Below, piece after piece: positions 13,719 through 63,300 of a stretch of DNA of 64,000 bases. The notes beneath the pieces were generated by a model. The model was not told the origin of the DNA. It did not search any database and saw only the letters and a list, made by a program, of their open reading frames with translations. The translations under genes were made by a program, and so were the position numbers. Position 1 is the stretch's first letter. Each line of letters begins with the position of its first letter. Origin of the DNA: Byssochlamys sp. IMV 00236 (taxonomy: Eukaryota; Ascomycota; Eurotiomycetes; Eurotiales; Thermoascaceae); the NCBI GenBank assembly GCA_001931875.2, contig MSJH02000809.1:310001-374000 (forward strand), in the 5' to 3' direction.

Positions 13719-14525
13719 CTAGATTCGGACGACCATTTCACTGTTAAATCCTGCAGCTTGTGCGAAGTAATACCCTCTTTGGTTCGATACCACCCTTTTG
13801 CCGGTTTCAGCGTCTTGAAAGTCACAGTTAAAATGCGTGTGTCCAAAGGCCCACAGTTTGACATTGTTGCGTTGCCAGCATTGTTCCATCTTTAGATCGG
13901 TCATGAATCCGGAGGAAATGCGGCTGTTTCGATGCCGCGGGTCAATCACAGTCTCATGCGTGGAAGGACAATAATGGGTGAAGACAACGATCTTCCTCTG
14001 AGGTTCGAAGCGGGAGATCGAATCGATTTCTGTATTCAGCCACGTAAGATCGGCGACGTGTGCTTCCTGATGCTTCTCGACGGACCAGTCATCAATATGA
14101 TAGAAATCGTTGAGACCAAAATTAACGCTCTCGGCTTGGTCCGCGGTAACATGGGAGAATAAAGTGCAGCCGAGAATGGTGACAGTCGCCGAGATATCGA
14201 ATCGTGTCTGGTCGAGAAGAATGAACTTGCCAGTTATCTCTCCCTCCTGAAACATATGATCTGCATCGTGCTTGAAACGGAGCACTTTCGACTTCGTCTC
14301 GGTCCAGTTACTATGATACGGTTCATGGTTGCCAAGGACAAGGAAAACGACACGAAATCTTTGCAACTGCGTGCGAATGAAATCGAAGAATCCATCGTCC
14401 TTGACATAGCCAATGTCGCCCAGCAGTGCCAGGAATGGCGCTTTAGGGGTTATGGTAAAAATATCATAAGCGGAAGGCGTCTCCAGATGGAGATCTGATA
14501 GGAGTTGGATCTGTATCTCATCCAT
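13719..14525 (-). CDS. Calcineurin-like metallophosphoesterase
   Basis: Single-exon gene of 268 residues from the ATG at 14525, which directly precedes the first motif (MDEIQIQLLSDLHLE). An in-frame ATG at 14672 would add 49 residues of poor quality. Motifs in order: SDLHLE, LLGDIGY, VLGNHE, FTHYCPS and GHTH, the complete set of metal ligands of the phosphoesterase fold. The domain fills the protein and there is no signal peptide or membrane segment. The substrate is unknown; similar stand-alone fungal proteins are annotated only as Ser/Thr phosphatase or phosphodiesterase family. It converges with the hypothetical gene on the other strand, leaving 84 bp between stops. Confidence 0.85.
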   Translation of the reverse strand: MDEIQIQLLSDLHLETPSAYDIFTITPKAPFLALLGDIGYVKDDGFFDFIRTQLQRFRVVFLVLGNHEPYHSNWTETKSKVLRFKHDADHMFQEGEITGKFILLDQTRFDISATVTILGCTLFSHVTADQAESVNFGLNDFYHIDDWSVEKHQEAHVADLTWLNTEIDSISRFEPQRKIVVFTHYCPSTHETVIDPRHRNSRISSGFMTDLKMEQCWQRNNVKLWAFGHTHFNCDFQDAETGKRVVSNQRGYYFAQAAGFNSEMVVRI

Positions 14526-15092
14526 GAGTGGTTGGTTAGTTGGGAAGATTTTTATGCTTGTCGCCGAACGGGCGCTTCTGTGCCAAATATATCTGGTTAT
14601 CACCCTTCCATGTGACGACGCGGTTGGGGGGACTTTTGCTACTAGTAGATATGTTGGTTTCTCTTTGATCATTTGAAATAGTAGAAACTGCTACTGAGAA
14701 GAAACAGTTTTTGCCTCTTTAGATTCTCTTTTGTGCAGTAGTTGGCATTGTTTTGTACTACGATAATGAGACGTTGCATCTTGTAGTTAACTACCGGATA
14801 TCTATGATTTCCTCGATCGACTTTTTCAGTGGTCAAGGTGTATAATTGGAACCATAGTTAGCTCCAAGAGATTATTATATTCCGATATACTATAGTAAGT
14901 AGATTATTCCGTAAAGGCTCGGGAAAGTGAAACTACTTAATAGTACTACTCAGTATCACATCCTGTCGCTCAAGATATTCCTTTTTCAACTCTTTGCGGC
15001 CACTAATAAATATCGACTCGGCGTAATTAGCTGTGAAATTAATTATTTCCGTACATCAAGTTGCAAAATCCGAGGGGGCCAAAAAAAAGACC
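14526..15092. other. A+T-rich intergenic stretch
   Basis: Holds the metallophosphoesterase 5' leader and A+T-rich sequence up to the terminator of the first tRNA-Ser gene. No gene is visible. Confidence 0.5.
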
Positions 15093-15099
15093 AAAAAAA
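15093..15099 (-). terminator. Pol III terminator (T7) of tRNA-Ser copy 1
   Basis: Seven consecutive T on the minus strand, six bases beyond the discriminator base. This is a standard RNA polymerase III stop and supports the tRNA gene being a transcription unit. Confidence 0.75.
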
Positions 15100-15105
15100 G
15101 ATCAA

Positions 15106-15267
15106 CGTCAGCGACAGGATTCGAACCCTGATGAGTATGTTAGCATGTTGTTGTATTTTATAATACGATTCGTTTAGACTTACTGTGCGGGCGAACCCAT
15201 TCGATGTCTACTACCTATCAGAGATAGGGATTCGAGTCGAACGCCTTAACCACTCGGCCACACTGAC
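15106..15267 (-). tRNA. tRNA-Ser(CGA), copy 1, with an anticodon-loop intron and a second T-arm insertion
   Basis: Reads UCG codons. The acceptor strands GTCAGTG and CGCTGAC pair with one G-T wobble; the discriminator is G (15106). The anticodon stem is TTCGA/TCGAA with loop CTCGAAA and anticodon CGA at 15234-15232. A conventional 25-nt intron follows A37 (15230-15206). The long variable arm is GGG-TTCG-CCC. The gene is then broken in the T-stem by a 56-nt insertion (15183-15128). It starts GTAAGT, has GCTAAC with the branch-type A at 15140, and ends CAG. Removing it exactly from GT to AG gives the perfect T-stem ACAGG/CCTGT and an 81-nt mature tRNA. Box A is upstream and box B is intact after the insertion. 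Exons are identical to copy 2 at 21.3 kb. Confidence 0.88.
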
Positions 15268-16277
15268 TGCTTAATTACTTTTTTGAGTTTATGCGCTATA
15301 TCAGTCAGTCTCTCGAGGCGGATAGAGTAGACCCCACGAGCGTACTTGTTTGGACATCATAACATCATCATGAATTTGTTTTTAGTCTTTCTACACATAC
15401 GAATGAACATTAACCTCGAGCTATATCTCGCAGATTTTCGCTTCATCTGCATTTCTATCCGATGATCAACTTGTCAACCTCGCGTGTATTGTAATATACT
15501 GCTACATGGAACAACGAGCTGTGCGCCTTGATAAACAGTAAATCCCGGATATCAACGATGAGTTCCAGTGACTCACGCAGTCTCCTGGAAAATATCTAAT
15601 TTCGTTGACTCGCTCAGAACCTCTGCTTAGCGGACTGGCTTTGCTCCCGTCGAGGAAGAGTTCTCAATCTATACTGCGATTCACCCTATCATAGTTCCGT
15701 CATGGGGTACTTTTACCTTGATGGAATTAGAGTAGAATAAAGGTAGCCTAGATATGCCACTGGCGTGGGTGCACCGCCCATATAAAGCGAGAATGCCATC
15801 AATTGCCATGTATCTTTTGCAAGGAGGATGGGCATGTGATCACAAACTGCCCAAGAGTTTCATCTTGCGGCATGTGTAGTAAGGCAGGACGCAAAACAGA
15901 GCATTGTCGTAATAAGGCAAGGGGTACTCCAAGGCCGATTATCGACAGTTATCGTTAACCTACAATATCCTTTTTGGGTATAAGAGTAAAGTTAAATAGT
16001 ACTGTGTAACACGGCAGGCTAACGTTTACATTGCATTGCGTCTTGATTGAGCTAGCACCCAGTGGAAGGTCTGTCAATGGTATCATCTCAAGCTACACTG
16101 GTCTCTTCCCACTCATCATGACATGGTACGTAATAAGGTAGCCCACAAGTACTAAGTGACAGGCTGCAAAGTAAAGTTAAGGAGTCGAATATTTGGTCTG
16201 AAGTATGTACATAAGAAGGAATTATCTTACATATACAAAAAGCGAATCTCCAAGAATAAGCGTCGTCATAACGTATT
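15268..16277. other. Intergenic region with a zinc-knuckle coding relic
   Basis: Between tRNA-Ser copy 1 and the HEM4 stop. Apart from the cysteine-rich open frame at 15752-15958 and short open frames on both strands, I see nothing recognisable. Confidence 0.4.
15752..15958 (+). pseudogene. CCHC zinc-knuckle fragment
   Basis: A short open frame with no ATG between stops at 15749-15751 and 15956-15958. It encodes closely spaced Cys-rich units. One is a perfect retroviral-type knuckle, CIFCKEDGHVITNC (CX2CX3GHX4C). The next, CGMCSKAGRKTEHC, has Arg where the His should be. Upstream Cys residues suggest a further degenerate unit. Such tandem knuckles occur in fungal nucleic-acid-binding proteins and in retroelement Gag. 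No other part of either is visible nearby, so this is most likely an exon fragment or relic. Confidence 0.5.
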
Positions 16278-17337
16278 TCAATCCGCTCCCTTCCACTGCT
16301 CCATAAATGCCTCAATACCCCCTCCGACTCCTTCTGGACTAGGCTTCTCAGCACACACATCCGGATCGAAGCCATATTTCGAACGAAGATGATCCCTCGT
16401 CGTCGGCCCGATCGTTGTGATGAACTCCCTCCTTCCCTTATCCTCGGATGTTGAAGTCGACGAACCAGGCAAGAGATCCAGTACTTTCAACATGGCATCA
16501 CACCCCGTTGGGGAGAATACCACCGTCCACAATGCCCTCTTTTCCTCTCCACTTGATATATACTGTCTTCCACTCTTGACCGCCTGCGCGAAATCATTCT
16601 CGAATGAATCCATCACTCCCGTCTCATAGACTACGAGCTCGTCAACTTGGATCCGCTCTCGCGATGGTAAAGACTCATCCATTAGTGTACGTGGGATAAT
16701 ATCTCTGCGCTGTTCGCCGACGAGGAAAAGGAGGGACGGCTTCGGATTCGTAGTTTCGTTCTCGCTTTCTGGGTAGAGGCCATTGTAGTGCTCTAGGATC
16801 ATCCGCGCGAGGTTCTCGCCGTTCCCAGCTTCGGAGCCGTAGAGCTGCGCATGAGGCAAGTGTGTGGATTGGATCGAAGAGAGCGAGCGAGAAGTAGCGG
16901 GTCCGACAGTGTAGAGAATTAGGGATTTGGATGCACTTGTTGCTTTTAGGACTGTTGTTCCTCTGAGTCAGAAGTGATTCATAGCATAGAACTTCAAGTA
17001 AAGGTTCAGATTGAAAGAGAACGCATCAAGAAAATGCCAGACACGTACCTCCAATTTCTTCCATAATCCGCGCGAACGCCTCTACCGCCCTCTGACTCGT
17101 GAATATTAATCCGCCATACTTCCGCCCAGATCCTTCATCCAATTGCCCCGAGAGGAAAAGATCCTTCACTATCCTTAAATTTTCATCGTGGAATCGGTGC
17201 TCCAGCACAGGGACGAAGGTGGGGTTGTAGCCGCGCGATGAGAAGTATTCTTCGTAGCCGTCGTGCGGGGTAGATTTCGTTTTCAGGAGGAAGATGGGTG
17301 GCTTGGAAAAGGAAGGAGGTTGTGAAGATGTGGCCAT
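16278..17337 (-). CDS. hem4: Uroporphyrinogen-III synthase
   Basis: Closes and rearranges hydroxymethylbilane to uroporphyrinogen III in haem and sirohaem synthesis. Exons 17337-17049 and 16960-16278 (donor GTACGT, acceptor CAGAG) join in frame to 323 residues. An ATG five codons upstream (17352) is equally possible. Family features are IFLLKTKS near the N-terminus, the GLIFTSQRAVEAF block, a TVLKATSASKSLILYTVGPATSR segment after the intron, VVFSPTG in the second lobe, and FITTIGPTTRDHL near the end. Length is normal for fungal HEM4. There is no targeting peptide, as expected for a cytosolic enzyme. Confidence 0.93.
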
Positions 17338-17724
17338 TGTTTCACGCTCCACGGTATAGGAAGACAGCGGACTTGGTCGTTTGGACTGGTCTCAGCTGTC
17401 AGATATGCACTTGGCTAAGACTGCTGACGCCCAGCTAAGTTGCGGAGCTCGCGGAGACGTGTGGGGTATATATGAGGATCGGATGGCTTCGTAACCGCTC
17501 TACGCCACGCAAATACCGTTTATTATATGTTACAAGGGCATTTTCAGCACCAATACAGATTGGCCAATATCCCAATATTTGCTCTGTCAATCCAGGCATT
17601 ATGATCTACAGAACCGGTGGAAACTAACTACTCTCCACGAAAGCCACCCAGATAGAACACAAATGAAATCAACTAGGTCTAGTCGAGCTTATATACACAA
17701 GTTTCAGAAAGAAAACGCACGCAA

Positions 17725-19324
17725 CTACTGGTCGTCCAACACATGCAGGTACTTCTTCTCTTCCTGCTTCTCCCGCTCAGTGGCCGGGGGCAGGTCGGCG
17801 TACTGAGAACTCCGGTAGCCCAGCTGTAGCCTGGTTAGATATCTCATATATAGCTGACTGAGAGGAGAAAAGGCTTACCAGGTAGTGGAAGGTGAGGTTG
17901 CTGAGTTCAGCGGGCTCAATTCCTAGATCCTTAAAGGTCTTGGCTGTGGGGTCAATCTTCTGGTCGATGAATTCCCTCTCGACCTCATCGGCAGAGAGAG
18001 TGGGCCACCAGATGAGCTTGTTGAGCCAGTAAGCAGCCGGCTTCAGGATGGCCTTGGGGAGGTTGATGTGACGGCGGTGCTTGATGATCTCACGGTCAAC
18101 GAGCTCAGCGATTTCAGCGGTGGAGTAGTTTTTAGGACCGTAAAGCTCGAAAGTCTCCGAAGCGGTGGTGTCATCGTGCAGCATGCGTTCAAGAGCGGTG
18201 CCAACATCGATAACCTATAGTGGTTAGCCGTTGCACTGGTTGCCTTAGAGGTCCATCCACTTACGTGAACAGGCCAGTAGCGCTCCTGCATGTGGTTGGC
18301 CGTGAGGAGGTTGGTGACACCAGCGAGCTTGTGGAGCAGGTTGTCTTCGAAACCAAACATGGGCGCAGGACGGACGATGGTAGTCTCAGGGAAGATGTCA
18401 CGGGCGACCTTCTCACCCCATCCCTATCGATATAATTCAGTACGCGCCTGACGTCTCATTAACCGCAGGATGGACGAACCTTGGTACGGAAATAGTCGGA
18501 TGGCGAGTCCATGTCTGCGTTGAAGGAGGAGACGTGGATGAAACGGTCAACGTCGTACTTGGCGACTGCTTCCGCAATACGCTCGGTACCATCAACATGA
18601 ACATCCTCGTAGGAGAAGTTCCTATTAACTCTTCAGCATGACTTCCAACAAAATTTGAGGTAAATTAAAACCAACTTTGTAGGATACTGGCGACCAACAA
18701 GGTTGTAGACGACATCTGAGTGACGAACACTCTCCTCAATCGACTGGGTGTTGCGGAGGTCGTATTCCTGGACGCGCAAAGGATCAGTATGGCGCTCAGT
18801 CCTTCGTCGAATTGCCAAATCGTACCATGAAGACGACTCTTCCCAGATCACCAGTAACTTTGAGGTGACGCTTGGCCATTTCCTCACGGTAAGGAATGAC
18901 AACGGTGCATCCTTGGCGGGCTGTTGCGATATCAGTCACAAAGCATCCCTGGTGTTCAAGTCATGGCAGACATACCCAGTCTGTTCACAATGTAGCGGCC
19001 CAGGAATCCAGTAGCACCGAAGACGGTGGCAGTATGACCTGCGACTTCATTGAGCCAAAATTCGACGGAAGGAAGAATTAGTAGGGATGTGTACCTCCAA
19101 GGGACGACCTGCGGGAAGAAGACTGTCAGTTAGACCTCGGCACACAACGACAACCCAGCCTTCACTCACCGTCCACCCTGAACCTTGATGATGGGCTTTC
19201 CAGTCCTGGTGATCGACACATCTTGAATAGATCTACGCTGCTGCAATTGGAACTGCGCGCGAGCATTGATGGGTGCGGGGGCGAACGCCCTCGAGGCGCT
19301 GCTGATGGCCCGGGACTTCTGCAT
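17725..19324 (-). CDS. NADH:ubiquinone oxidoreductase 40 kDa subunit (NDUFA9 / NUO-40 type)
   Basis: Peripheral-arm subunit of mitochondrial complex I that binds NADPH and stabilises the junction with the membrane arm. At least six exons between the ATG at 19324 and the stop at 17725. The N-terminus is rich in Arg, Ala and Ser with no acidic residues, a good mitochondrial presequence. It is followed by the dinucleotide-binding GATGFLGRYIVNRL of the extended short-chain dehydrogenase fold, then VVYNLVGR, HVSSFNAD and the REIIKHRR region. The final exon ends KKYLHVLDDQ. Introns are 50-100 bp with GTGAGT, GTACAC and GTATGT donors. The divergent tract 19325-19789 holds its promoter. Confidence 0.92.
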
Positions 19325-19789
19325 GGTCGCTCTGCGGATGAATGACTGTTAGAAAAGAAGAGCCCACCAAGTTAAGGACCAATTGACGGTCCGGCAGCAG
19401 TGATCTTGGTGGACGAGACTCACTGCAGAGCTTGAAGCGTTCCTGTGCTTGGTGGTTGCTGGTCCCTCGTCTCCAGAAGTTGAGCAGAGCACGGGACTTG
19501 CAGCACTATGCGCTAACCCAAATCTGGACACAAATCGCACCTTAATCGTTGAGCCGCATCAAGCATGTACCAATGCCTTTGGAGATATTTCCAACCTTCA
19601 GCAATTGCTGTTCTACCGGAGATATTTACGAGGGATGTATTCCTACTTTTATATAGTTTCAACAATTAGTATTTAAAGAGCTAACAAACTATCATAGGAA
19701 ATGCACGTGCCCAGTGCTTTGGACTTCGACCCTCTCTCCAAGAATGACTTGGAAGCGGTACAGCTAGATCATAGAGGACAAACGTGCCA

Positions 19790-20620
19790 TCATGCACAAT
19801 CTGCCCTCGCAAAGAACAGCGTCCTTTGTTGGTCCTTGCCCTTCATGACGAATTTCATTGGCTTCTCCACGACCTGGTAGTCGAACGCCGCCTCTACTCC
19901 AGCATCTTCGCATAGCTTCCTCACCTCATCGCGTGTAAAGCCATGCTTCCCTATTGTCGCTGCAGCTTCTGGATGATCTTTGTGGAACTCGTGAGTGTGC
20001 TTGTCGGGAACGAAGTCTACGATGAGTAATGTGCCACCTTTCTTCAACCTGTCCGCGAGGCGTTTGAGAGCGAACTCCGGATCAGGGAAGTGGTGAAGTG
20101 CCAAACTGACGACAACTATGTCGAAATTAAAGAGATTTGGTTCACAAAGCTCATCTGCAATGGTTTCACAGAGCAGGTCGCCCTTAAGCCCAACCATCTT
20201 TTCTGCGACTCCGGCCTCCCTGGCATTCTTGTTGAACTCAGCAATCATGTTGTCGGAAACATCGATGCCTACTGCCTTTGTAACGAATGGAGCCAAAGTC
20301 TATGTGCGTTAGCTTCTTGTGTAGGTGTCTATCTGACAATATCCAATGCATACGCTTGAGACAGTACCCGGGCCACAGGCATAGTCCAAGAGCGTGATTT
20401 CTTGGTCTCTTCCACCCTCAGTGTCTGTCCATTTGGGACTAATCCAATGACGGCGAGACTCTATCTCGCTGATCAAGAGCTGTGTTGCCTCGGCGAAGTC
20501 AGTTTTGTAATGAGTTGCCTTTTCGCTGTGGCTGATTGTCAGATAATCGAGTCATGACCACACAACTTTCTGCCTGGCTTACTCGAAATAGTGCCGATTT
20601 GCTTCAGTAAAATGAGACAT
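19790..20620 (-). CDS. Class I SAM-dependent methyltransferase
   Basis: Three exons: 20620-20583 (MSHFTEANRHYF), a middle exon with the SAM-binding motif I LDYACGPGTVS, and 20296-19790. Later motifs are VGIDVSDNMI (acidic residue after strand 2), FDIVVVSLALHHFPDP (motif II/post II) and GGTLLIVDF (strand 5). The C-terminal part with KHGFTRDEVRKLCEDAG is common to small-molecule methyltransferases of the UbiE/COQ5-like type. Length is about 245 residues with no targeting or membrane segment. The substrate cannot be predicted; there are no biosynthetic neighbours. Confidence 0.85.
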
Positions 20621-21274
20621 CTTGATAGGCGATGAGGTAGCAAGTATCCTTTCTTCAACACAAGAAACACAAGAATATGTGAGTTTCTTTGGAATCGACG
20701 TCAAGTTAGAACTGCAGGGGGCGCGTTCAATGCAATTTGAATAAGTAGGAGCCTGCGCAGACGATATTAAAAGAATAATTGTAAGACCAAACTGGTTGGA
20801 TGTGAATCTGGGCTTTTATACCAGGTCCTGGCTCGGAGACATATCGGATACTTCTGATATCGTCCACGATGGGCCCCACTCCAGCTGCAGTAGTATCTGC
20901 TCTCCAGATGCAGATGGCCCTGGTAAATTATCCGTGTAGCCTAGTTTGGGCTCAAAATGTCTGCTGCGATGGCAGAAAAAAGCAATAAGGAGGGGCTTTT
21001 AACTTTTAGTTCGAGGATGTACCATATGTAGTTCCACCAAGGTAGCAAGGTGGCATAGTGTGCTCCCTTTCTGAGCAAGTAAAGGACGTCTTCGACTACC
21101 CTGTTTATTCACGTATTTGGTATCAATCACGAATTCATTGGCTCAGAAATGGGGAAGTAAGTTACTCCGTTTTGAGTCTGTTGCGGCTCGACAACATCGA
21201 CCATGTCAACCTACCTATGGGCAGCAGCAGTCTACTACTCGACTACTCCGGTGTTTGAGACACAAAAAAACAAG
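20621..21274. other. Intergenic region
   Basis: Promoter side of the methyltransferase and downstream flank of tRNA-Ser copy 2. No recognisable coding or RNA feature. Confidence 0.45.
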
Positions 21275-21284
21275 AAAAAAAAAA
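21275..21284 (-). terminator. Pol III terminator (T10) of tRNA-Ser copy 2
   Basis: Ten consecutive T on the minus strand, nine bases beyond the discriminator base of the second tRNA-Ser(CGA) gene. A T-run sits in the same position after copy 1. Confidence 0.75.
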
Positions 21285-21293
21285 GAAAGCAAC

Positions 21294-21457
21294 CGTCAGC
21301 GACAGGATTCGAACCCTGATTGGTACATGTTAGTTTACTTGTTTTTTTCTGTAATTCAGTTCGAAGTAGACTTACTGTGCGGGCGAACCCATTCGATGTC
21401 TACTCCTATCATAGATAGTATTCGAGTCGAACGCCTTAACCACTCGGCCACACTGAC
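21294..21457 (-). tRNA. tRNA-Ser(CGA), copy 2, with an anticodon-loop intron and a second T-arm insertion
   Basis: Same mature tRNA as copy 1, base for base (81 nt), anticodon CGA at 21424-21422, discriminator G at 21294. The conventional intron is 23 nt (21420-21398). The T-arm insertion is 60 nt (21375-21316): GTAAGT at the 5' end, ACTAAC with the branch-type A at 21330, and ATCAG at the 3' end. Exact GT-to-AG removal restores the T-stem ACAGG/CCTGT. The insertion interior is clearly diverged from copy 1, apart from the donor, branch and acceptor elements and scattered bases. The gene lies about 330 bp from the RPN9 start and is transcribed away from it. Confidence 0.88.
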
Positions 21458-21786
21458 ATAACTGGCGGAAATTTTTGCCAGCGGTAGTCTAATAATACTA
21501 CTGTACTCCGCGTGCCTTATCAAGATCGAGGCGATCCCTCCGCGCGGAGCTTGTAGCCTGAGTACGGCGCCGCAGAGACACCCGTTTAGCTCCACGTCGG
21601 CCTTCCTTCAGTGATCACGGCGGAGGGACAGCTTCGTCAGCATACACACCTTTATACCTCGACTTGCTGCCATCGTCCAGCTCTTTAGACCCTGAAATCA
21701 TCATCTTGCCCTCCTTACCTCCTCCTGGGGCCTCGCATTATTCTCTCCGCAGCCCGTTCTTGTTGACACCCGCCTCCTTCCCTACC

Positions 21787-23090
21787 ATGGAGGGTGACAA
21801 GATCGCCGACTTCCTCGCAGACCAGCGCGATCAAGCTCCTGCGGAGGCGCAGGCCTTTTTCTTGAGCTTCGAAGATTTCTGGGAGAGGAAGCTATGGCAT
21901 CAACTCACGAATTCCCTCATAGATTTCTTCTCTCTACCAGAGAGCGCACCGCAACGGCTACCTCTCTTCAAGTCGTTCATCCTCAGCTTCGCCGATAGGA
22001 TCAATCAGCTGAAGTTCGTGTCGCTGGGTTTGATGGCATCTACGCAATGCGCAGGTCAGTGGTTTCGATATATACAATCCCTTGCTCCATTGGGTGCTAC
22101 GTTGAAGCTCGTCCGATCTGAACAGAGGCTGACATCACTGGTGGTCCTTAGATGACAATGAACGATTTGCTTTCCTTACTTCCCTTGCAGACAAGGTCAA
22201 CAAGCCAGACTCGCAGGATGCATATGTCTACGCTTTGGCAGATGTGGCCAGCGTGAAGCTACGACTAAAGGACTTTGAGGGGGCGCGCAAGGACTTGGAT
22301 ACTTCTGAGAAGATCCTGGACCGATTCGACTCCGTTGAGACGGTTGTCCATGCTTCGTTCTACAAAGTAAACGCTGCTTACTACCAGGTATGTGGAATAC
22401 AGTTGATGCTTTTTAGATACTGCCATGGTTCTAATGTACGATCTCCAGGCCAAGCAAGAATTCGCCGCTTATTACAAGAACGCCCTCCTGTACCTCGCAT
22501 GCATCAACATTGAAGACTTGACTGAAGAAGAGCGTGTGTCGCGCGCATATGACCTCAGTGTCGCAGCCCTTGTTTCGGACTCAATCTATAACTTTGGTGA
22601 ACTGCTCCTGCACCCTATCCTGGACTCCCTCACCGAGACACCTCACGCCTGGCTGCGGGACCTTCTCTTCGCCTTCAACCGTGGCGATCTCACCGCCTAC
22701 GACGTCCTCGCCGGTAACATCACCAAGAACCAGCTCCTCGAGCAACACCGTATCTTCCTGTACCAGAAGATCTCTCTGTCGGCCCTAACAGAGACTGTCT
22801 TCCGTCGTCCCCCGCACGACCGCACCATGACCTTTGCCGCCATCTCCGCCGAGACGAAGGTCAAGCCCGATGAAATCGAACATCTCGTCATGAAGGCGCT
22901 ATCCCTCGGTCTGCTGAAGGGTAGCATCGACCAGGTCGCTCAGATCGCGCGCATCAACTGGGTCCAACCCAAGGTACTGGACATGAAGCAGATCGACGGC
23001 ATGCGGAGGAGACTGAAGGAATGGGACGCTGGCGTCAACCAGCTCGGACACTGGATCGAAGGTGTTGGAAAGGATGTCTGGGCTGCTTAG
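21787..23090 (+). CDS. rpn9: 26S proteasome regulatory subunit RPN9 (PSMD13)
   Basis: Non-ATPase PCI-domain subunit of the proteasome lid. Exons 21787-22054, 22152-22387 and 22449-23090 join in frame to 381 residues, the usual length. The N-terminal helical repeats contain FEDFWERKLWHQLT and DVASVKLRLKDFEGARKDL. The C-terminal PCI/winged-helix part contains TFAAISAETKVKPDEIEHLVMKALSLGLLKGSID, and the end VNQLGHWIEGVGKDVW is typical of RPN9. The start at 21787 (MEGDKIADFL) fits; an in-frame upstream ATG at 21664 would add 41 residues rich in Leu, Pro and Ser and is unlikely. It converges with GAA1. Confidence 0.93.
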
Positions 23091-44688: not shown

Positions 44689-46697
<2,009 letters not shown>

Positions 46698-52113: not shown

Positions 52114-53400
52114 GATGAATTTACAGTATAGGATGTTTTGGTATCTCACTTGGAGGAAAGGAATCAACCGGATGGCGGTGATGCGGGGTGGACTTAAAAG
52201 GCCGATGAGGGGAATGCGCGTCGGAGAAAGGGCAATGTGGATGGGAGATCGAAAAAAAGAATCCGACCGAGGCAGAGGGCGGAATCGAACTGGTGCCGCT
52301 GGCTGCTCGGGAAGGGTACTTAAGTCACTTTAGGGGTTTCATGTGTGAGGAGTGGGACGACCTAGCTCAGAATCCATTTCTTGCCTTTTACCAGAGATGG
52401 CCGTGGGTCGCCCACAAAACTCCTCTTCAGCAATCTTTGGAATCCTACTGTCGACACAGCAGTCGATAATTTTATTGTTTTTGTTTTTTATTCTTGTAGT
52501 CTGGTGTCTGGAGATATGCTTTCTTTTTTCTTGATTTTTAATTAGGCGTATTTGGACAGATATGCAACATTTTGTGTTCTCGGGTGCGTGTCGATAATTG
52601 AAAAAACTCCGTGTGATTATGACTCTATACTACATACAGTCCAACACAGAACAGAGACGACAATAGACTATATGACTGGACACTGTGCTAATATGAATCT
52701 ATTTTCTAAAACCTAGTGTTCCAATTTACGTGTTTTCTTCCTCCTCTAGCACCGGGACATAGATAAAAAGAGGTTCTTTAGCTTCTCAAAAGCTTCAACT
52801 GCAAGGACGCAAGCCGAGTCTGGATTATTAAACACTATATCTACTGCCGTTGCCTGATAGCTAGTAGCCCTCCTGTTACTATAACTTTAGGCTATGTTCT
52901 AAAATGATTTTTTTTTTCGTTCCAATACGTCCACAGACCGCATCTAGATTCTCGTATATCTAAACATCGCAAATCCAACTATTTCTCTCGAAAGCACTAA
53001 TCGATAGTCTAGGTATTGCATAAAGTACAATCGTCCACAGAGTAGATATTGTTCTCCTGCCTTTCCTCCATACGCGTGAGATCAATAATAGAGGGTCCTT
53101 GTAGATGTATCTGGCCTGGGGAGCTGGATAATACTATGATGTTCCGTATTTACTAAGAACATCACTATCTTCTATATACATTTAAATTGTCTGCCTTTCT
53201 ACAGTAGAGATATAGCGCCCAGTCTGTAACTTTTACCTGTTATTTTGCAGTTGCTATATGTTAATTTTCTCGAAATACTTCGCAAAAGTTTCGTAGGGAA
53301 CTGAATCACAGCTAAGTACTTTATTTCCCATGAATCGATATGTGCCCTAAAACATCAAGCCTTCGAGTACTGGCTCAGTTCTTGACGCCTTAAACGGTTA
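52114..53400. other. Transitional intergenic region
   Basis: From the HIT promoter into A+T-rich DNA. It contains a T-arm-like motif near 52280-52300 on the minus strand but no complete tRNA. No protein gene is visible. A+T content rises steadily to the right. Confidence 0.45.
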
Positions 53401-53990: not shown

Positions 53991-54359
53991 TAATATAATA
54001 CCATAGGGTAGGATACTTAGCAGCAGAAGAGGCTTATTATTAAAATAAGCCACCGGCTCTATCTCTAGTGCTCTATATTCCTTAAGTATAGAGTCTTTCT
54101 ACTGAGAGATAATTAAAGTCGGAGGGAGGGCAATTAGAGAAGAACGTTGCCAAGGTGAAGTTCTCTATAAGTAGGTATTTTTACTACCTGGAACTGTATT
54201 CTAAGTTCTATACTATTATTAACCGCTTTTAAGCCTTATTTAGGCGGCAAATTATCCGAACCCTGATATGCAATTATGTGGAGATAATTGTCTAGTACCG
54301 GGTATTAGCTCAGTAAAGGTAGAAAAAAGCTTAGCGAGGGTAGAGAAGTTTTTCTGAAG

Positions 54360-57300
54360 AAAGTCTTAGCATTTTTTTTATTCTTAATTAACTTTTACTT
54401 AATTAAAATAATAATAGAGCTAGTCTCTAATTAATTTTTATTATATATATAATAATAATACTAAAGCTAAAGCTATAGAGAACTATAATATATTCTATAT
54501 ATATACTAGATATACTCTTTACCTATTTAGATAAGATATAATAGCTAATTCTCCTAGGCAAGAAAGTATTAAACTAGAAGATAAAACTATTAATAATTAG
54601 ATTAATATAGGATTATTAGCAGTATATCTATAGTATATACTAGATATATAATACTAATATATCTATAAGATATATTTAAAGAGTTTAATATTATTATTTT
54701 ATTAAATAAATAGTTAAAGGTTTTTATAGCAGAGATATAAGACTATTTATATATATTTAGCTACCCCTATACTAATATAATAAGAATTATATACTTTATT
54801 TATAAAATAAAACTATATCTAGAAAGCTAAGTATATAAAATTAATTAAAAAATTATAAGGGAAATATTAAAGGTAGGTTCTATATATACTAGACTTATAT
54901 TATATTAAGGGCTAATATTACTAGATTTAATTTTTAGTCTATAATATTAATAGCTATAATACTATTTATCTAAAGCTATTATATAAAGATAATAAAGATA
55001 AAGAGAATATAAAGATATATTATTAAATTTACTAATATAATAGTATTTACTATTATAAATATATTTATCCAGATATCTTTTATATATGCAATATATATAA
55101 TTATATTACTCTTAACTATATTAATAACCTATAAAAGAAGTTAAGCTAATAGCTTTTAAATATCCTTATTTTAGAATAATTTTAAACTGTTACAGAAATA
55201 TAAATAAAATAAAACCTATATTTTATAAATATTAATATATAACTATTATAGGTAGTATAATACCTTTATAAGAATATAGGATTAAGATAATATTAGACTA
55301 TATTCTTATTATTAAACTAGAGAGTATAGCTATATAAGATAAAAATTAATAATCTTCTATAGAAGCAATATATATATATTATAAATATATATCTAGCATA
55401 TATTAATTATATATATAGATTTTATATTTTAAATACTCTCTCTTTATAAATATAGAATTATAATATAAAGCTATTTCTCTTATTTAATACTTATATAATA
55501 TTAATATACCTTATCTTAATATAATTACTTAATATAATATTTATATAATAAAACTATAGTATATATATATTAAGGCTATATATTCTAGGCATATATAATA
55601 TAGTTTTAATTATCCTTAAGATCTTAAAAAGATAATATAGTTTAAATATAATATTAAATTTAATATCTATATTTTAATCTATTAGAAATAATTTTAATTT
55701 TATCTTTTAATTGCTTATAGAAGATATTTATATTATTCTCTTTATCTTATAAAACTGCCTAAGAATATTATAGATAAAGTTACTATATTAATTTAATAAT
55801 AAAATATCCTAGACCTTATAGCGCGTAAGTATATACCTAGTATATATAAAGTATATACTAACCTTTAATTAGGGCGATTTATTATATTACTATAATTTAT
55901 AACTCTATATAGCTAATATAATAAGAATATATTATGTATAATTTATTAAAGCCTTAATATTAAGGATAAAGTTATAGTATTAATTGCTAAAAAAAAGTTA
56001 TTCTACTATTTAGCTAATAATAATATTATAAATATATATATAGTGCTATTTATATAAAGTATTAACTACTAATATTATATAGGAATATAATATAAATTTA
56101 CTCTAAATTATAACTGCAATAATAATAAATAATAGATTAAAGAGATCTATTTCTTTAATAATAAGCATTTCCTTATTATCTATTATATATATGCCCAGGT
56201 AAAGGCTTTTCTTAATATAGAATATATTAAAATAGACCTTTTATTTAAGATAGTTTAAAAAAAAACTAATCTTTTTATAATTATTAGATAAAATAATATA
56301 AATAAGAGTAAATATATCTACTATATATATATATAATCTATACTTATTTTATAAAGGGATTAATACTTATATTTATATTTTTATTAACTTAGAAATATAA
56401 GAGGCTTATATAACTATATTTATAAAAATATTTTAAATTCTAGAGAATATAATATATTCTCTAATTTAATTTGTTTATATCTATTAAAATAAGAAAGATA
56501 TATAAATAGTTATTATTAATATATATATAAAGTAAGTACCTGATAAGACTATAATTTATTTTATCCTTATTTTATATTTCTATAGTCTAATTCTAGTATA
56601 AGATTTAAAGACTTTCTCTATAATCTTAATCCTTTAAGAATATAGTTAAAATACTTATAGCATATAATTATCTTCTATTTAGTTTATATAATAAAGAACT
56701 TCTTAGTATAATTTTTAATATATCTATTTAAATATATAATCTATAGCTTATAAATAGCAGATTTAACTAATAAGCTTCTTTAGCTTATAGATAATATATA
56801 TAATATTAATATTAATCTCTACTCTTAAATTAATTCTAAGTAAAAACTATAAATACTTAATAGGCTTATTTATAAAATATTAAAGATCCCTATTAAATAT
56901 TAGAAATATATATATAAGTATATAAGGCTTAGTAAGAGTAGCTATTTTTAAGATAATTATATAACTAAAAAGGTATATTTATTACTTAAGGCTATTCTAT
57001 AGTAAATATATATTAAATATATATAAGATATAGACAGTAACTAATTAATATATAAGTATAAAGAAGCATATTTAAGAAATATATATAATACTAAATATCT
57101 ATAAGACTACTAGTATTAATATAATATAAAGGAATTATAGTAATATTATATAGCTTATAATTTAACTATAAAGAAAAGATAAATATATATAATCTATTAT
57201 TATACTAGATTATAAATTCTAATTATATAGATTAATATTATTAATATATAGTAGCTAAATAAGTTTAAAAGCTTATATTCCTATATAATCTACAGAATAT

Positions 57301-60300
57301 ATATAATATATTTAATATTACTATCTTAGCTTATAATTGCTAATAATTAGATTTTATTTCTATAATATAATTAATAAATATAGCCTCTATTATAGATCTA
57401 TAGTCTAACTTAAGATAGAGTATAACTAGTATAAGGCTTATATATATAGACTCTATATTACTACTACTACTATTTAATATAAAGTATAAAATATAGAGAC
57501 CTTATATTAAAAGTATACTAGAAGTAATAAAGAGAGAAACCTATTATTAATATATTAAGATTCTAAATTAAAATATTATTAGATTAAAGATAAGAGCTAA
57601 AGAACTTATAGAATAATAGCTTTATAAAAAAAAAAAAACTATTAGCTAGAATAGCTAGCTTAAAGAGAGAGAATTAAATAGTATATATTAAGCATAGATA
57701 TATTTTATTTCAAATTAAACTAGAGTATATATAGGCGCTTAAGTTATAGATTCTTAAAAATATCCTTTTTATTAAATACTTATTAAAAGTAAGTATCTAA
57801 ATATAAAAAGAATATATAAGGTATATACTTAAGCAGTATAAGAAATAACTAGACTATTTATAAGCTAAATATGCTAAATAATAATACCCTATACCTATAT
57901 TAATTATATATATACTAAATATATATAATATATACTATTATGCTTAAAGAAGGAATTTAATATACTTAAGAATCTATTAATAAAACATATACTAAATATA
58001 TACTTACTTACCCCTTAATTAGTTATTAGCATTATTAAACTACTCTTTAATATTATTATTATTAATAATTATAATACTAGATTTATTAACTATTTTACTA
58101 TCTATAGTAAGATTAATATAGATATATGCTAAAAATATATATACTTACTATTAGAGCTTTTCTTCTCTTTTTTCTTATCTTTATTTTTATTATTCTTATT
58201 CTTATTTTTCTTCTCTATTTAATATTAGTATATACTATATATATATAGAAGCTAGCTTATCTTTTAGCTTTAAAATAAGTAATAAAGGAGAGTAGAAATA
58301 TTTAAGCGAGCTTAAACTATATTATTAAAAGATATTAGTATAACTCTATATATATATAATATATATTTATCTTATAGCAGCAGCTAGAACTAAAAATAAT
58401 AAAAATATATCTCTATTTATATATTAGCTTTTAGTATTATTTCTTACTTTTCTCCTATATATATATTATATTTATTAGAGGGTTATTAAAAAGAATTTAG
58501 CCCTTATTATTAATAATAATATAATAATTATATAATTTTAAAGAAGAGAGATAAAGATTAAATTAGAGATTAAGCTAATATTAGCTAAGAATAAATATAA
58601 TAAGATATATTAAGGTGCGGGCTTAGAGAGCAGGTTAGAATAAATAGAATAAGGTAGTTAATACTAGGACTAGCTATAAGATCTCTATTTAGCTAATTTA
58701 GACTAAAATAGGCTATTATAAGTAGGCTTAATAAATAAGATATAGCTTAAGAAACTTAAATTTAGATTAAGCTATATGCTAAAGATATCTTTATAAGATT
58801 ATATAACTCTTTATATAATTTAAAAGAGTATAGACTTTATTCTTCTAGATTAAATAAGTATTAGCTAGTAGGTTAATTATTTTATCCCTTATATTAGTAT
58901 TATAATAATACTCCTCTCCTTAAGATTAAGCTTTATTAAGATTATCTTTAAGCTTTAGCTTATTTAAATAATAGTAATAAAAGTTTATAATAATCTCCTA
59001 AATATATTACAGATAGTATATAAGTTTTTTAATTAAATTATTATAACTTAATTACTTAATAATATATTATAATTAAGGGCTTTTATATTTATAATATTTT
59101 TATTAAGAGTCTAAAATATCTTTAATAATTTATTTCTTAAGGCTATTAACTTTAATAGGTAATAATAAAGATTATTTTTATCTAAGTATAAGATCTTTAA
59201 TAATAAGGCGAAGCAGGCTAATATTAAATATAGGATAGATATATATTAAAATAGGTAAGTTAAACTAATAAATATATAGGCTAATAATCTTAATAATATA
59301 AAATAGGCTAAGATTCTTCTAATTAAATTTCTTCTAAAGGCACTAAATATAAATATTCTAGGTATTTAATTAAATAAATTATCCTATATAATAGCAGTAA
59401 GCTAAGATTTAGTAATAATTAGTCTACTCTTTATAATAAGCTTAAATAATATAGATTTAAATATAGATATAATTTATAATATCTTATATTTTTTTAATAA
59501 AAGCTTTAATATCTTTAGCAGTAAGCTAATTTATAAGCTAAATAGGCTTAAATCTTATATATAGATAGAACCTATAATTAGTAAAAAAGGGTAATATTTT
59601 AATAGTCTTAGAATAATAAGAGTTTAATATAAATTTAGCTAAAGATAGCTAGTTAACTTAATTATCTTATAAATAGCTAATATAGGTATATAAATATTGT
59701 TTTAGGATAATATTTATCTTCTTAATCTAATTATTAATCTTAGGATAATAAGTAATAAATAATAAATTCATAATATTTAAATATTAAGTTAAGTATTTCT
59801 AGAAAATAGTAATAAACTAAGAGCTTTAATTAGATATTATAATCTTTAATAGCCTATAAAGCTTCTATATATAGTAGATATATAATTATACTACTCCTTT
59901 AATATTATAAATAGCCTAATAGAGAATAAAATACTTTATCTTTATAAGTTAATCTATAGTAACTAATATAGTATTATAACCTTAGTAAGATATAAGTCTA
60001 ATAATAAAATCTATTAAAATATCTTATTAAAAGTATTTAAAGATAAAAAGCTAGTATAAGACTCTTTAATAGCCTTTATTTAAGGATATAATATAGTAGT
60101 AGGTATAGTAATTCTAGGTCTAATAATTTATATATTAGTATATATTTAGCTAATAGTACTCTTATAAAATTAAATTATAAAGCTTATATTTTTTAAGGTA
60201 TTTAAATATATATTTATTATAGTATTCTTATAATAAACAGGCTCTTAGCTTATTATAATTAAGAATATATAGACAGTTTTTATAATATAGATATCTTTTT

Positions 60301-63300
60301 CTTTATTAGCAGTTAGCTAGTATAATCTTAAGATAATAATTAGCTTTATAATCTAAGGCTTATAGAATAAATTATATTAAGTTATTAAATAAATAAGCTA
60401 TATTTAGTAGGTCTTTAATACTTAATAAATACTTTAGTTTATTAAATATAGTAAAGAAACTTAACTAATTTTATTTAATAAATAGGGCTATTTTTTTAAT
60501 AGGCTAAATAGTCTCTTTAATAGACTAAATTATCTTCTTAGTAAATTAAATAATCTTAATAAATTAATTAGGCAGTAAGATAAACTAAATAGTTTCTTTA
60601 AGCTAAATAAATTAATTTTTTAAAATAAATTAGGCAAGTATTCTTATAAGTTTAATAAGATTTTTAACCTTTTAAGCTATTAAATTAGTAAAATAAATAT
60701 ACCTTATTATTTAACTCCTAATAATAGCTTTTAATTTTAGAGATCTCTAAATTTATAAATTAAAATTCTCCTTCTTTAAGACTATCTAGCTTTAATACTA
60801 TAGCTGTTTATCTCTCTCTTTAAAGAGATTCTCTAACCTCTTAGTTAGGGTATTAAGCTTTACTTCTTACTTTCTAGGATAATATATAATTTAAAAGTTA
60901 AACTAAGATAGAAATTTAGATTAATAGGCCTATTACTAGTTTAGCAGCTTAATTAATATAAAATATTCTAGGTTATAATAGTCTATAATAACTTTAATTA
61001 GTAATAGTATATCTTTAAGCTTAAGATACTACTTTTTAAAGCAGCGAATAATTGCTAGTAATTTCTTATTATAAATCTTATAATTATATTTTATAATAGA
61101 GAGTTTCTTTAAGAAAAATATAATAAAATATAGGATTTCTTTATTATTATATTAAGATATAACTCTAATTAATATATAATTAAATAAGTTAGTTTTAACT
61201 ATAATCTTATAAATCTAGTTAAATAGCTTTAAGATTAAGACTTAAATAAATATTTCTTTTAGGGCTTTAAAACCAGACTAATAAATAAATATCTAATTAA
61301 AGAGAACTCTTTTTTAATTAAGTTTATAAACAATATAATTATCTTAAAAAAGTTATAAATAAATTAATAATAAAAGTTGCTAAACTTAATAAAGGCTTAT
61401 ATATTAATTATATAAATTAGGGTCTTCTATTTAATAATTATTTTTACCTTATCTAAGTTTATCTTAATATAGTCTTAGCTAATAATAATACTTAAGAATT
61501 TAGTCTTAGAGATAATAAACTTATACTTCTAGATTTTTATATATAAGCCTACTTTATATAGCTTCTATAAAATAGTATAGATATATTAAATATATTTAAA
61601 ATAGATTATATTATATACTAGAATATTATTAAGATATGCAGTATAAAAGATATTAAGGTAATCTTATAAGATATTATTAATAAACTATTAAAATATTGCT
61701 AGTGCTTTTATTAAGCTAAATAGTATTACTAATAATTTAAATAGGCTAAATTAAGTATAGAAAATAATTAAGTATTCTTATCTTTTTTTAATATAAAAAT
61801 TATTAAATACAGAAATAATATTAATCTTTATAAAGTATTTTATTTCTTTTAAATTATTTAGGATTTCTTTAATTAAGAGTAAGAAGTATTAGTCTTTAAT
61901 AATTATTATATTTAGGGCTTAGTAATTTATGCAGATTTATATCCCTCTATTAGGCTTCTTAATAAATAGAATTAGAGATATAGCAGGCAATAAGCTTAGA
62001 TAAATAAATCTCTTTCTTAAGTTTTTTTTAATTTATTCTTTTAGAACCTTTAATTTATCTTAAGATATAATATATAGGGGTTTAAAAGGAAGTAACTTCT
62101 TCTTTAATAGCTTAATATTATAGTTATAAAAATAATATAATAATAGATGCTTAGCCTTCTTAAGAGAAAAGATATTAATATAATTCTTAAACTCCTTAGA
62201 TAGCAGGTAGATAAGGTCTTTTTTCTAGACTTATTTAATCCTTAGAGTAGTATTTAAATCCTTTAGAGTAATTATAAATATCTAAATATTTTTTTAAGTA
62301 TAGGTAGAATAAGCGGCTAGAGAAATAAAGGCTATATTCTTTTTTTCTAATTCTCTAAATCTTAAGAATAAGTATTAAGGCAAAGCCTTTAGGGGAATAT
62401 TATATAGGGTAAATATCTTAGTTAGTTTTAAAGGTATATTATAATTCTTTTAATAATAATTATTATTAAAAGTAATATTATAAGCAGTAAATTATAAATA
62501 TAGGTTATAGTACTTTAATTAGGGAAGTCTTAAAATAATAGGGTAATGCGCTAGTTAAATAATATAGAACTTAGTATCTTTCTTAAAATAATTCTTAATT
62601 CTTATATCTATCTAGATATAATATATAATTTTCCTATTCTCTAGTTCTCTTTTATTAAATATATATAAGGTAATTAGGCTCTTTAAAGAAATAAGCTCTA
62701 ATTCTTAGTCTTTAGCTTATCCTTAATCTATAAATCTTTATCTTTTAGCTCTAATATTAAGTAAGATATAAATTAATAAATAAATCTTCTCCTTTTTCTT
62801 TTCTAATATTATAGATAATATTATTAATTTTAATTATTATAAATATTTTTTAAGGTTAATTCTATAAATAGTAGCAGCAAAGATTTAGATAATATATAGT
62901 TTTTAAGCCTGGCTATAATTTACTCTAAGCTTACTCCTTTTATTAAAGACTAACTAAAGGATAAATTATATAAGTCTAAGAATTAAATTGCCTAAGAAGT
63001 CTAGAGATAGAGTTTATATATAGCTATAATTTAAATCTTCTAGCAGTTATTTAAATATAGGCAGTTTTTAATATAATATTTTAGGAAGCTATAATAAAAG
63101 CAGGCACTAGTTTTATAATATAATAGGCTATACTCTCTCTTATCTAAGTATCTAGAAGTACTTAAGTCTATTAAATTATATAGCTATACTAGGGCTAATT
63201 TACTTTTTTATATAGGGCTTTTTTAAGACTAATTATTATATCTTATAGCTAAGGCAGGATTTAGAATAAATAAGAGAGATTAAATATATTAAATAGGTTT

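What the first reader, a model, noticed from the sequence alone, without database searches (positions are those of the whole stretch)
15106..15267. tRNA-Ser(CGA) with a spliceosomal-type intron inside the T-stem
Besides the normal intron after position 37, the gene has a 56-nt insertion at 15183-15128 that splits the T-stem. The insertion begins GTAAGT, has GCTAAC 12 nt before its end, and ends CAG: the donor, branch and acceptor of the mRNA introns in this same genome. Exact GT-to-AG removal restores five perfect T-stem pairs, and a T7 terminator follows the gene. Eukaryotic tRNA introns known to me sit after position 37 and are cut by the tRNA endonuclease. A GT-AG intron in a Pol III tRNA body would be new to me, implying that the spliceosome, or an unusual endonuclease, acts on a tRNA precursor.
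Basis: partly seen in the sequence, partly recalled or inferred. Interest (0 to 1): 0.92.

Follow-up and report, generated by a model that had tools for sequence, protein, structure and literature searches.

The report
mRNA-type introns inside tRNA genes
In a Paecilomyces mould, serine tRNA genes are split by short stretches carrying the start, branch and end signals of the mould's mRNA introns, so the cell likely has to use its mRNA-splicing machine to finish tRNAs it probably cannot do without.

Summary
Both tRNA-Ser(CGA) genes of the window (15267-15106 and 21457-21294, minus strand) carry an ordinary 37/38 intron plus a 56- or 60-nt GTAAGT...CTAAC...CAG insertion between T-stem positions 51 and 52. 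Removing both gives an 81-nt cloverleaf that ARAGORN calls tRNA-Ser(cga). The same kind of insertion sits in the one tRNA-Ser(UGA) found (same T-stem site) and in the three tRNA-Ser(GCU) genes found in Paecilomyces contigs, between anticodon bases 35 and 36, where GT-AG removal restores the serine anticodon. All 6 have GTRNGT, CTAAC with its branch A 11-14 nt from the end, and AG. None forms a bulge-helix-bulge. Exons are 100% identical between copies of a family while introns and flanks diverge. Three tRNA-His genes have a related D-loop insertion (GTGAGT...CTAAC) ending in TG, an unsolved exception. The assembly mixes Paecilomyces cf. variotii and Rhizopus microsporus. The intact tRNA-Ser genes found lie on small contigs taken as Rhizopus: one by protein identity, the others by composition or tRNA type. 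Likely mechanism: spliceosomal introns in Pol III tRNA precursors, as in fission-yeast U6. No RNA evidence was available. Ten literature searches listed no such case.

The parts
15231..15267 (-). tRNA-Ser(CGA) copy 1, exon, positions 1-37 (A box 15260-15249)
15206..15230 (-). copy 1, ordinary 25-nt intron at 37/38
   Evidence: begins TC, ends AC
15184..15205 (-). copy 1, exon, position 38 to T-stem 51 (variable arm, ends CACA)
15128..15183 (-). copy 1, 56-nt GT-AG insertion in the T-stem (GTAAGT...GCTAAC...ATCAG)
15139..15143 (-). copy 1, branch-point-like CTAAC
15106..15127 (-). copy 1, last exon: T-stem 52 to position 73; begins exactly with the B box GGTTCGAATCC (15127-15117)
15093..15099 (-). 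copy 1, T7 Pol III terminator
21421..21457 (-). tRNA-Ser(CGA) copy 2, exon, positions 1-37
21398..21420 (-). copy 2, ordinary 23-nt intron at 37/38
21376..21397 (-). copy 2, exon, position 38 to T-stem 51
21316..21375 (-). copy 2, 60-nt GT-AG insertion in the T-stem (GTAAGT...ACTAAC...ATCAG; CTAAC 21333-21329)
21294..21315 (-). copy 2, last exon with B box
21275..21284 (-). copy 2, T10 terminator
45835..45883 (+). mRNA intron of the CRAL/TRIO gene used for comparison (GTAAGT...CTGAC...CAG)
   Evidence: gap between tblastn pieces of P0002 and P0003
45926..45979 (+). mRNA intron for comparison (GTATGT...CTAAC...CAG); boundaries read from signals inside a low-identity tblastn piece
46080..46131 (+). 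mRNA intron for comparison (GTTGGT...CTAAC...CAG); boundaries read from signals at a tblastn gap

Best explanation
Both tRNA-Ser(CGA) genes of the window carry, besides the ordinary 37/38 intron, a 56- or 60-nt GT-AG insertion between T-stem positions 51 and 52 that is likely a spliceosomal intron, predicted to be removed from the tRNA precursor by the mRNA spliceosome. Shown by sequence: insertion, signals, exact restoration of the cloverleaf, the same kind of insertion in tRNA-Ser(UGA) and tRNA-Ser(GCU), identical exons with diverging introns, A box, B box and T-run terminator. Inferred: Pol III makes one precursor; U1 pairs with GTAAGT and U2 with CTAAC; the lariat is removed and CACA joins GGTTCG; the tRNA endonuclease and ligase separately remove the 37/38 intron. 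One precursor would thus need two different splicing machines. The proper T-stem cannot form until the insertion is gone, so end trimming, T-loop modification and export would have to wait for it (untested).
For: (1) 6 of 6 split tRNA-Ser genes (CGA x2, UGA x1, GCU x3) have GTAAGT or GTATGT, CTAAC with the branch A 11-14 nt from the end, AG, and length 55-60 nt. Four mRNA introns compared: GTAAGT/CTGAC/CAG, GTATGT/CTAAC/CAG and GTTGGT/CTAAC/CAG in the window's CRAL/TRIO gene and GTAGGT/CTAAC/CAG, 92 nt, on contig C478. (2) Spliced forms are 81-nt tRNA-Ser(cga), (tga) and (gct) by ARAGORN; with introns allowed, copy 1 is called Ser(cga) once the T-stem insertion is removed but not with it in place. 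(3) In tRNA-Ser(GCU) GT-AG removal gives anticodon GCU with purine 37; removal at 37/38 would give GCG, an arginine anticodon, on a serine tRNA body (letters). (4) Exons 100% identical within the CGA and GCU families, insertions 70-88% identical with both ends kept, flanks unrelated: the pattern of selection on exons and splice signals. (5) No intact gene with the CGA or GCU body found on Paecilomyces contigs. (6) Signals beyond chance. (7) Precedent for a spliceosomal intron in a Pol III RNA: S. pombe U6 (PMC8917221, passages).
Against: No RNA reads were available, so excision is not shown. The T-stem register is ambiguous by one base (TA...GG fits equally). One Ser(GCU) intron contains TTTT, a weak Pol III stop. 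The BHB control is weak: the 37/38 introns of the CGA genes also score only 2 of 4 central pairs and differ from the insertions mainly in the flanking anticodon helix, 6 pairs against 0-1. The three tRNA-His D-loop insertions, otherwise alike, end GT...TG in the register that keeps GT, and one of their four registers gives a BHB-like core, 4 of 4 pairs of which two are G-U. A decayed Ser(CGA)-like gene on C577 lacks the insertion. An intact Ser(CGA) on C829 is assigned to Rhizopus only by composition of 301 bases and by tRNA type. The search for intact copies cannot see strongly diverged genes, and no tRNA-Ser(AGA) was found on contigs taken as Paecilomyces, so the gene inventory is incomplete.
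Confidence: 0.82

Rival explanations
1. The insertions are ectopic tRNA introns removed by the tRNA splicing endonuclease (Sen complex), as known from red-algal nuclei and nucleomorphs; the GT-AG look is incidental.
For: Ectopic tRNA introns exist in C. merolae and nucleomorphs, and many in Guillardia theta form no defined BHB motif (PMC3978253 passages; PMC4090602 section 5). The CGA and UGA genes carry 37/38 introns that Sen would remove. One register of the His insertion has a BHB-like core. BHB scores separate Sen introns poorly here: the CGA 37/38 introns score 2 of 4.
Against: Central BHB helix 1-2 of 4 pairs in 6 of 6 tRNA-Ser insertions, with 0-1 flanking pairs. Full spliceosomal signals at the structural boundaries in 6 of 6, which Sen is not known to need. 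By the ruler model (PMC4090602 section 5) Sen measures from the tRNA body to the anticodon loop, which fits neither T-stem 51/52 nor, exactly, 35/36 (inference).
Confidence: 0.08
2. The split genes are pseudogenes or silent copies and the cell uses intact genes that were not found.
For: Arm insertions in eukaryotic tRNA genes are mostly supposed to be pseudogenes (PMC4090602 section 5). No Ser(AGA) was found on contigs taken as Paecilomyces, so the search is not complete. A decayed Ser(CGA)-like copy exists (C577). An intact Ser(CGA) on C829 is assigned to Rhizopus only by composition and tRNA type.
Against: Exons identical across copies while introns diverge; terminators kept in 9 of 9 split genes; every Ser(GCU) and His gene found on contigs taken as Paecilomyces is split; splice signals kept.
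Confidence: 0.07
3. The tRNA works unspliced, with the insertion bulging from the T arm, or the insertion is a self-splicing intron.
For: In the minimum-energy folds of both precursors the last exon pairs with the end of the insertion around an enlarged or shifted T loop.
Against: Counted by hand, the five bases before the T loop in the unspliced CGA genes give two Watson-Crick pairs and one G-U pair; unspliced Ser(GCU) has a broken anticodon; 55-60 nt is far too short for group I or II introns (size ranges recalled), and Rfam shows none in the window at gathering score or in 14000-22500 at E up to 10.
Confidence: 0.02

Closest known systems
Spliceosomal intron in fission-yeast U6 snRNA (Pol III transcript with an mRNA-type intron)
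   Same: An mRNA-type intron in a Pol III non-coding RNA gene, removed by the spliceosome (PMC8917221 passages; the original reports seen only in its reference list)
   Different: Here the host RNA is a tRNA with internal promoters and its own tRNA splicing route; several isoacceptors are affected; the intron interrupts the T-stem or the anticodon
Ectopic tRNA introns of Cyanidioschyzon merolae and nucleomorphs
   Same: Introns away from 37/38, including T-arm and D-arm sites, sometimes several in one gene (PMC3978253 passages, PMC4090602 section 5)
   Different: Those are attributed to the tRNA endonuclease and, in C. merolae, BHB motifs; 3-24 nt in Guillardia; here 55-60 nt with GT, CTAAC and AG and no BHB
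U2-type introns of this fungus's mRNA genes
   Same: Donor, branch and acceptor; length 49-54 nt in the CRAL/TRIO gene, 92 nt in a gene on C478
   Different: Host gene is a tRNA, predicted Pol III transcript without cap or poly(A)

Membership tests
U2-type spliceosomal intron | GT donor matching the genome's mRNA donors | tested here: met
   GTAAGT x5, GTATGT x1 in 6 of 6 tRNA-Ser insertions; 4 mRNA introns compared have GTAAGT, GTATGT, GTTGGT, GTAGGT
U2-type spliceosomal intron | Branch sequence CTRAC shortly before the end | tested here: met
   CTAAC with A 11-14 nt from the end in 6 of 6
U2-type spliceosomal intron | AG acceptor | tested here: met
   CAG, AAG or TAG in 6 of 6 tRNA-Ser insertions. 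Not met in the 3 tRNA-His insertions, which end TG in the register that keeps GT
U2-type spliceosomal intron | Exact GT-AG removal restores the functional product | tested here: met
   81-nt tRNA-Ser cloverleaves with the right anticodon; product function itself not tested
U2-type spliceosomal intron | Removal in vivo by the spliceosome through a lariat | not testable with these tools
   No RNA data
Canonical eukaryotic tRNA intron (Sen complex) | Position 37/38 | tested here: not met
   T-stem 51/52 or anticodon 35/36. The separate 37/38 introns of CGA and UGA do meet it
Ectopic BHB tRNA intron | Bulge-helix-bulge at the two junctions | tested here: not met
   1-2 of 4 central pairs and 0-1 outer pairs in 6 of 6 tRNA-Ser insertions; the control is weak, since CGA 37/38 introns also score 2 of 4; His inconclusive, one register of four gives 4 of 4 with two G-U
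Group I or II self-splicing intron | Recognisable ribozyme core | tested here: not met
   Rfam scan of the window: only U5 and tRNA at gathering score; length 55-60 nt
Pol III-transcribed tRNA gene | A box, B box, T-run terminator | tested here: met
   A box within 2 mismatches of the search word in the 6 tRNA-Ser genes, B box intact, a run of 5 or more T beginning within 13 nt of the 3' end in 9 of 9 split genes; transcription itself not tested

The most novel reading that the evidence does not exclude
A third class of nuclear tRNA intron: in Paecilomyces the spliceosome is an obligatory tRNA-processing enzyme. It cuts U2-type introns out of the T-stem of tRNA-Ser(CGA) and (UGA), out of the anticodon itself in every Paecilomyces tRNA-Ser(GCU) found and, with a non-AG acceptor, out of the D-loop of every Paecilomyces tRNA-His found, so that decoding of AGC/AGU and CAC/CAU codons depends on mRNA splicing and some precursors need both splicing machines.
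Probability: 0.7. Interest if true: 0.96.

Novelty: new variant of a known kind. Interest (0 to 1): 0.9.

Why it matters
Nuclear tRNA introns are taken to be the business of the tRNA endonuclease; [quoted passage not shown] If the spliceosome processes tRNA precursors, the two splicing systems are not separate, a Pol III transcript with internal promoters can be a spliceosome substrate, and translation of particular codons becomes tied to mRNA splicing. It would also explain missing or miscalled tRNA genes: ARAGORN calls the split Ser(GCU) genes Thr(agt). It gives a natural test of how spliceosomal introns invade structured RNAs, because several sites and isoacceptors can be compared in one genome.

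Tried and rejected
BHB folding at the junctions: rejected for tRNA-Ser, with a weak control. Free folding of the precursors: z-scores -1.56 and -1.44, nothing notable. Looking for the same split genes elsewhere: exact-pattern scans of viral contigs gave 0; genome contigs gave 0 and then 1 hit in a Comamonadaceae MAG, which I read and rejected as chance: a tRNA-like 3' end but no tRNA 5' half seen in the 281 bases read. Intact Ser(GCU), Ser(AGA) and Ser(CGA) genes in the same assembly looked like a refutation until the Ser(GCU) contig C111 proved to be Rhizopus microsporus (99% identical protein). The others are assigned more weakly. C238, C429, C466 and C829 are small, AT-rich and lean to Rhizopus in 4-mer composition; the short C121 stretch leans the other way (+0.09) while its 10-kb stretch is neutral, but its tRNA is identical to that on C466, with the same upstream flank. 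If the Ser(AGA) genes were Paecilomyces, the claim for CGA, UGA and GCU would stand. C789, C481, C837, C663, C762 and C809 candidates were read and are not intact tRNA-Ser genes. A search for CTGAC-type branches did not complete, so split tRNAs with that branch may have been missed. Literature: 10 searches; I saw titles and starts of abstracts of what they listed (20 of 142) plus passages of five papers; none reports a spliceosomal intron in a tRNA gene. Most papers of subscription journals and all bioRxiv preprints are not held.

Full report
What was checked. The gene lies at 15267-15106 on the minus strand. Rfam's tRNA model covers it at 28.4 bits, below its cut-off of 29, and the second copy at 21457-21294 at 29.4 bits. 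The tool's ARAGORN, run with the bacterial code, finds neither. Reading from the 5' end, copy 1 is: exon 37 nt, a 25-nt intron at 37/38, exon 22 nt, a 56-nt insertion, exon 22 nt, and a T7 run that begins 6 nt after the end. Copy 2 is: 37, 23, 22, 60 and 22 nt, then T10. The last exon begins exactly with the B box GGTTCGAATCC.

Boundaries. Of the excisions that leave five T-stem pairs (27, 21 and 18 counted for CGA copy 1, CGA copy 2 and UGA), the one that removes the whole extra stretch with the most Watson-Crick pairs is GTAAGT...ATCAG in both CGA copies (five) and GTATGT...TTAAG in UGA (four and one wobble). One alternative register (TA...GG) gives the same product. In window 1-54000, both strands, the only 56-nt and the only 60-nt block with GTRNGT, CTRAC and AG are these two insertions; over lengths 45-75 there are 27 blocks from 20 donors, not sorted further. 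Of 300,000 shuffles each, 1 (CGA), 1 (UGA) and 0 (GCU) kept the signals.

Which organism. A CRAL/TRIO protein in the window is 81-95% identical to Paecilomyces proteins, P. variotii first. The assembly G000 (47.4 Mb, 840 contigs) is mixed: an ORF on contig C478 is 97% identical to P. variotii over 82% of its length and one on C111 is 99% identical to Rhizopus microsporus. Contigs C806, C478, C783, C812 and C613 are 115-659 kb with stretches of GC 0.44-0.51 and, where scored, Paecilomyces-like 4-mer composition. Contigs taken as Rhizopus are 12-63 kb with GC 0.30-0.48 in the stretches read. Only C806, C478 and C111 were assigned by protein identity. Of the tRNA-bearing stretches taken as Rhizopus, the C121 one (L015) scores Paecilomyces-like in 4-mers (+0.09), its 10-kb stretch neutral (-0.01).

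More split genes. A search for the Ser-type A box, which ignores introns, with up to 3 mismatches gave 20 places (14 of them read with flanks). They are: the 6 split tRNA-Ser genes, 1 decayed Ser(CGA)-like gene (C577), 2 Leu (C543, C676), 5 intact Ser on contigs taken as Rhizopus (C111, C121, C238, C429, C466), 1 Arg-like (C654), 2 other tRNA matches on small contigs (C218, C410), 2 non-tRNA places (C762) and 1 not read (C802). The further split genes are tRNA-Ser(UGA) on C478, with a 15-nt 37/38 intron and a 55-nt GTATGT...ACTAAC...AAG insertion at the same T-stem site, and three tRNA-Ser(GCU) genes (C783 and two on C812) with 55-58-nt GTAAGT...CTAAC...TAG insertions between positions 35 and 36.

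The anticodon case is the strongest. The loop reads CTGC[GTAAGT...AATAG]TAA. GT-AG removal gives CTGCTAA, anticodon GCU with A37. Removal at 37/38 would leave GCG with U37 on a serine tRNA body. With the introns removed the genes are called tRNA-Ser(cga), (tga) and (gct), all 81 nt.

A wider search for CTAAC upstream of a B box gave 33 places, against 37 for the reversed-pattern control, so the count itself means nothing and the letters were judged one by one. Six are the tRNA-Ser genes. Three are tRNA-His on C613. Nine have the letters of tRNA-Glu (5 of 9 fetched and read) and seven those of tRNA-Asp (none fetched), where CTAAC belongs to the tRNA itself. One is an intron-bearing tRNA gene on a small contig (C637). 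Seven were judged unrelated from the matched letters only.

tRNA-His. All three copies found carry a 53-54-nt insertion in the D-loop: TCTA[GTGAGT...AACTAACCCCCC(C/A)ATTG]GTGGTAGGAC. Removal gives a 71-nt RNA that ARAGORN calls tRNA-His(gtg), with one T-C mismatch in the anticodon stem. It has a strong donor, the branch sequence and a C tract, but the 3' boundary that the tRNA allows is TG, not AG; the four equivalent registers are GT-TG, TG-GG, GA-GT and AG-TG. Using the next AG instead would delete most of the D-loop, though ARAGORN still calls that 64-nt product a tRNA-His. One register (AG-TG) gives a 4-of-4 BHB core with two G-U pairs, the others 1-2 of 4. GT-TG introns are known in mRNA genes (recalled, not looked up). 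I count His as a likely relative that the GT-AG reading does not explain.

Selection. Between copies the mature exons are 100% identical (CGA 81 nt, GCU 81 nt, His 71 nt). The insertions are 70% (CGA), 79-88% (GCU) and 81-96% (His) identical, with both ends kept. The flanks are 43-54% upstream and 54-71% downstream, the latter T-rich and short. That is the pattern of working genes with introns rather than decaying copies.

Intact copies. BLAST of the mature Ser(CGA) against the assembly finds, over full length, only the Ser(AGA) genes on C121, C238, C429 and C466 (83%), and pieces of the split and decayed copies. The spliced T arm with up to 3 mismatches gives 34 places. Eight have a T-arm-like five-pair stem and loop: C111, C121, C238, C429, C466 and C829, which are intact tRNA-Ser on contigs taken as Rhizopus, C654 (Arg-like) and C789 (read, no tRNA). 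The other 26 were mostly judged from the 18 letters alone. The spliced Ser(GCU) anticodon arm with up to 3 mismatches gives one place, C809, not a tRNA. Mature His finds only the three split copies. These searches have limits: no Rhizopus His was found either, so a strongly diverged gene would be missed. No Ser(AGA) was found on contigs taken as Paecilomyces.

Machines. mRNA introns of the CRAL/TRIO gene are GTAAGT/CTGAC/CAG (49 nt), GTATGT/CTAAC/CAG (54 nt) and GTTGGT/CTAAC/CAG (52 nt), and one on C478 is GTAGGT/CTAAC/CAG (92 nt). The first and last are bounded by tblastn pieces; the other two boundaries were read from signals at or inside tblastn pieces. The tRNA-Ser insertions fit these. 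BHB central pairing is 1-2 of 4 in all six, with 0-1 outer pairs; the 37/38 introns of the same genes score 2, 2 and 4 of 4 with 6 outer pairs, so the central score alone does not separate the CGA introns and the control is weak. Best reading: spliceosome for the T-stem and anticodon insertions, tRNA endonuclease for the 37/38 introns.

Known background. Eukaryotic tRNA introns are mostly at 37/38; arm insertions are usually supposed to be pseudogenes; exceptions are nucleomorphs and C. merolae, attributed to the endonuclease (PMC4090602, passages and section 5; PMC3978253, 12 passages). A 2026 review calls tRNA splicing spliceosome-independent (PMC13149111, passages). A 2025 paper on introns of all classes (PMC11782384, passages) mentions tRNA introns of the archaeal and group I kinds. 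A spliceosomal intron in a Pol III RNA is known in S. pombe U6 (PMC8917221, passages). Ten literature searches listed no report of a spliceosomal intron in a tRNA gene in the open-access library. Whether it is reported elsewhere I cannot say.

Verdict. A real, repeated and very unusual gene structure; function inferred from sequence alone. Excision is very likely, since the Ser(GCU) genes found in Paecilomyces contigs could not decode serine otherwise; the spliceosome is the likely agent; RNA evidence is the missing piece.

Noticed in passing
L086 (G000:C613:52640-52830), L092, L093: Three tRNA-His(GUG) genes with a D-loop insertion GTGAGT...CTAACCCCCC(C/A)ATTG; the 3' boundary is TG, not AG, in the register that keeps GT.
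   Followed up: partly
L009 (G000:C577:199528): Decayed Ser(CGA)-like gene with the 37/38 intron region but no T-stem insertion and a ruined B box.
   Followed up: partly
G000 assembly: The assembly mixes Paecilomyces cf. variotii and Rhizopus microsporus contigs.
   Followed up: partly
L084 (G000:C829:12660-12960): Intact tRNA-Ser(CGA) on a 22-kb contig, Rhizopus-like by 4-mer composition and tRNA type; the contig was not placed by protein identity.
   Followed up: partly
window 54000-64000: GC falls abruptly from about 0.41-0.46 to 0.16-0.20; an AT-rich block, possibly RIP-mutated or centromere-like.
   Followed up: no
window 52347-52463: U5 spliceosomal RNA gene, 75.5 bits, close to the AT-rich block.
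   Followed up: no
G000: No tRNA-Ser(AGA) was found on contigs taken as Paecilomyces; it may be split or diverged in a way these searches miss.
   Followed up: partly
L074, L075 (C121, C238): Small contigs with a tRNA-Ser(AGA) gene near one end and long ORFs that look like parts of a LINE-type retroelement (judged by eye).
   Followed up: no
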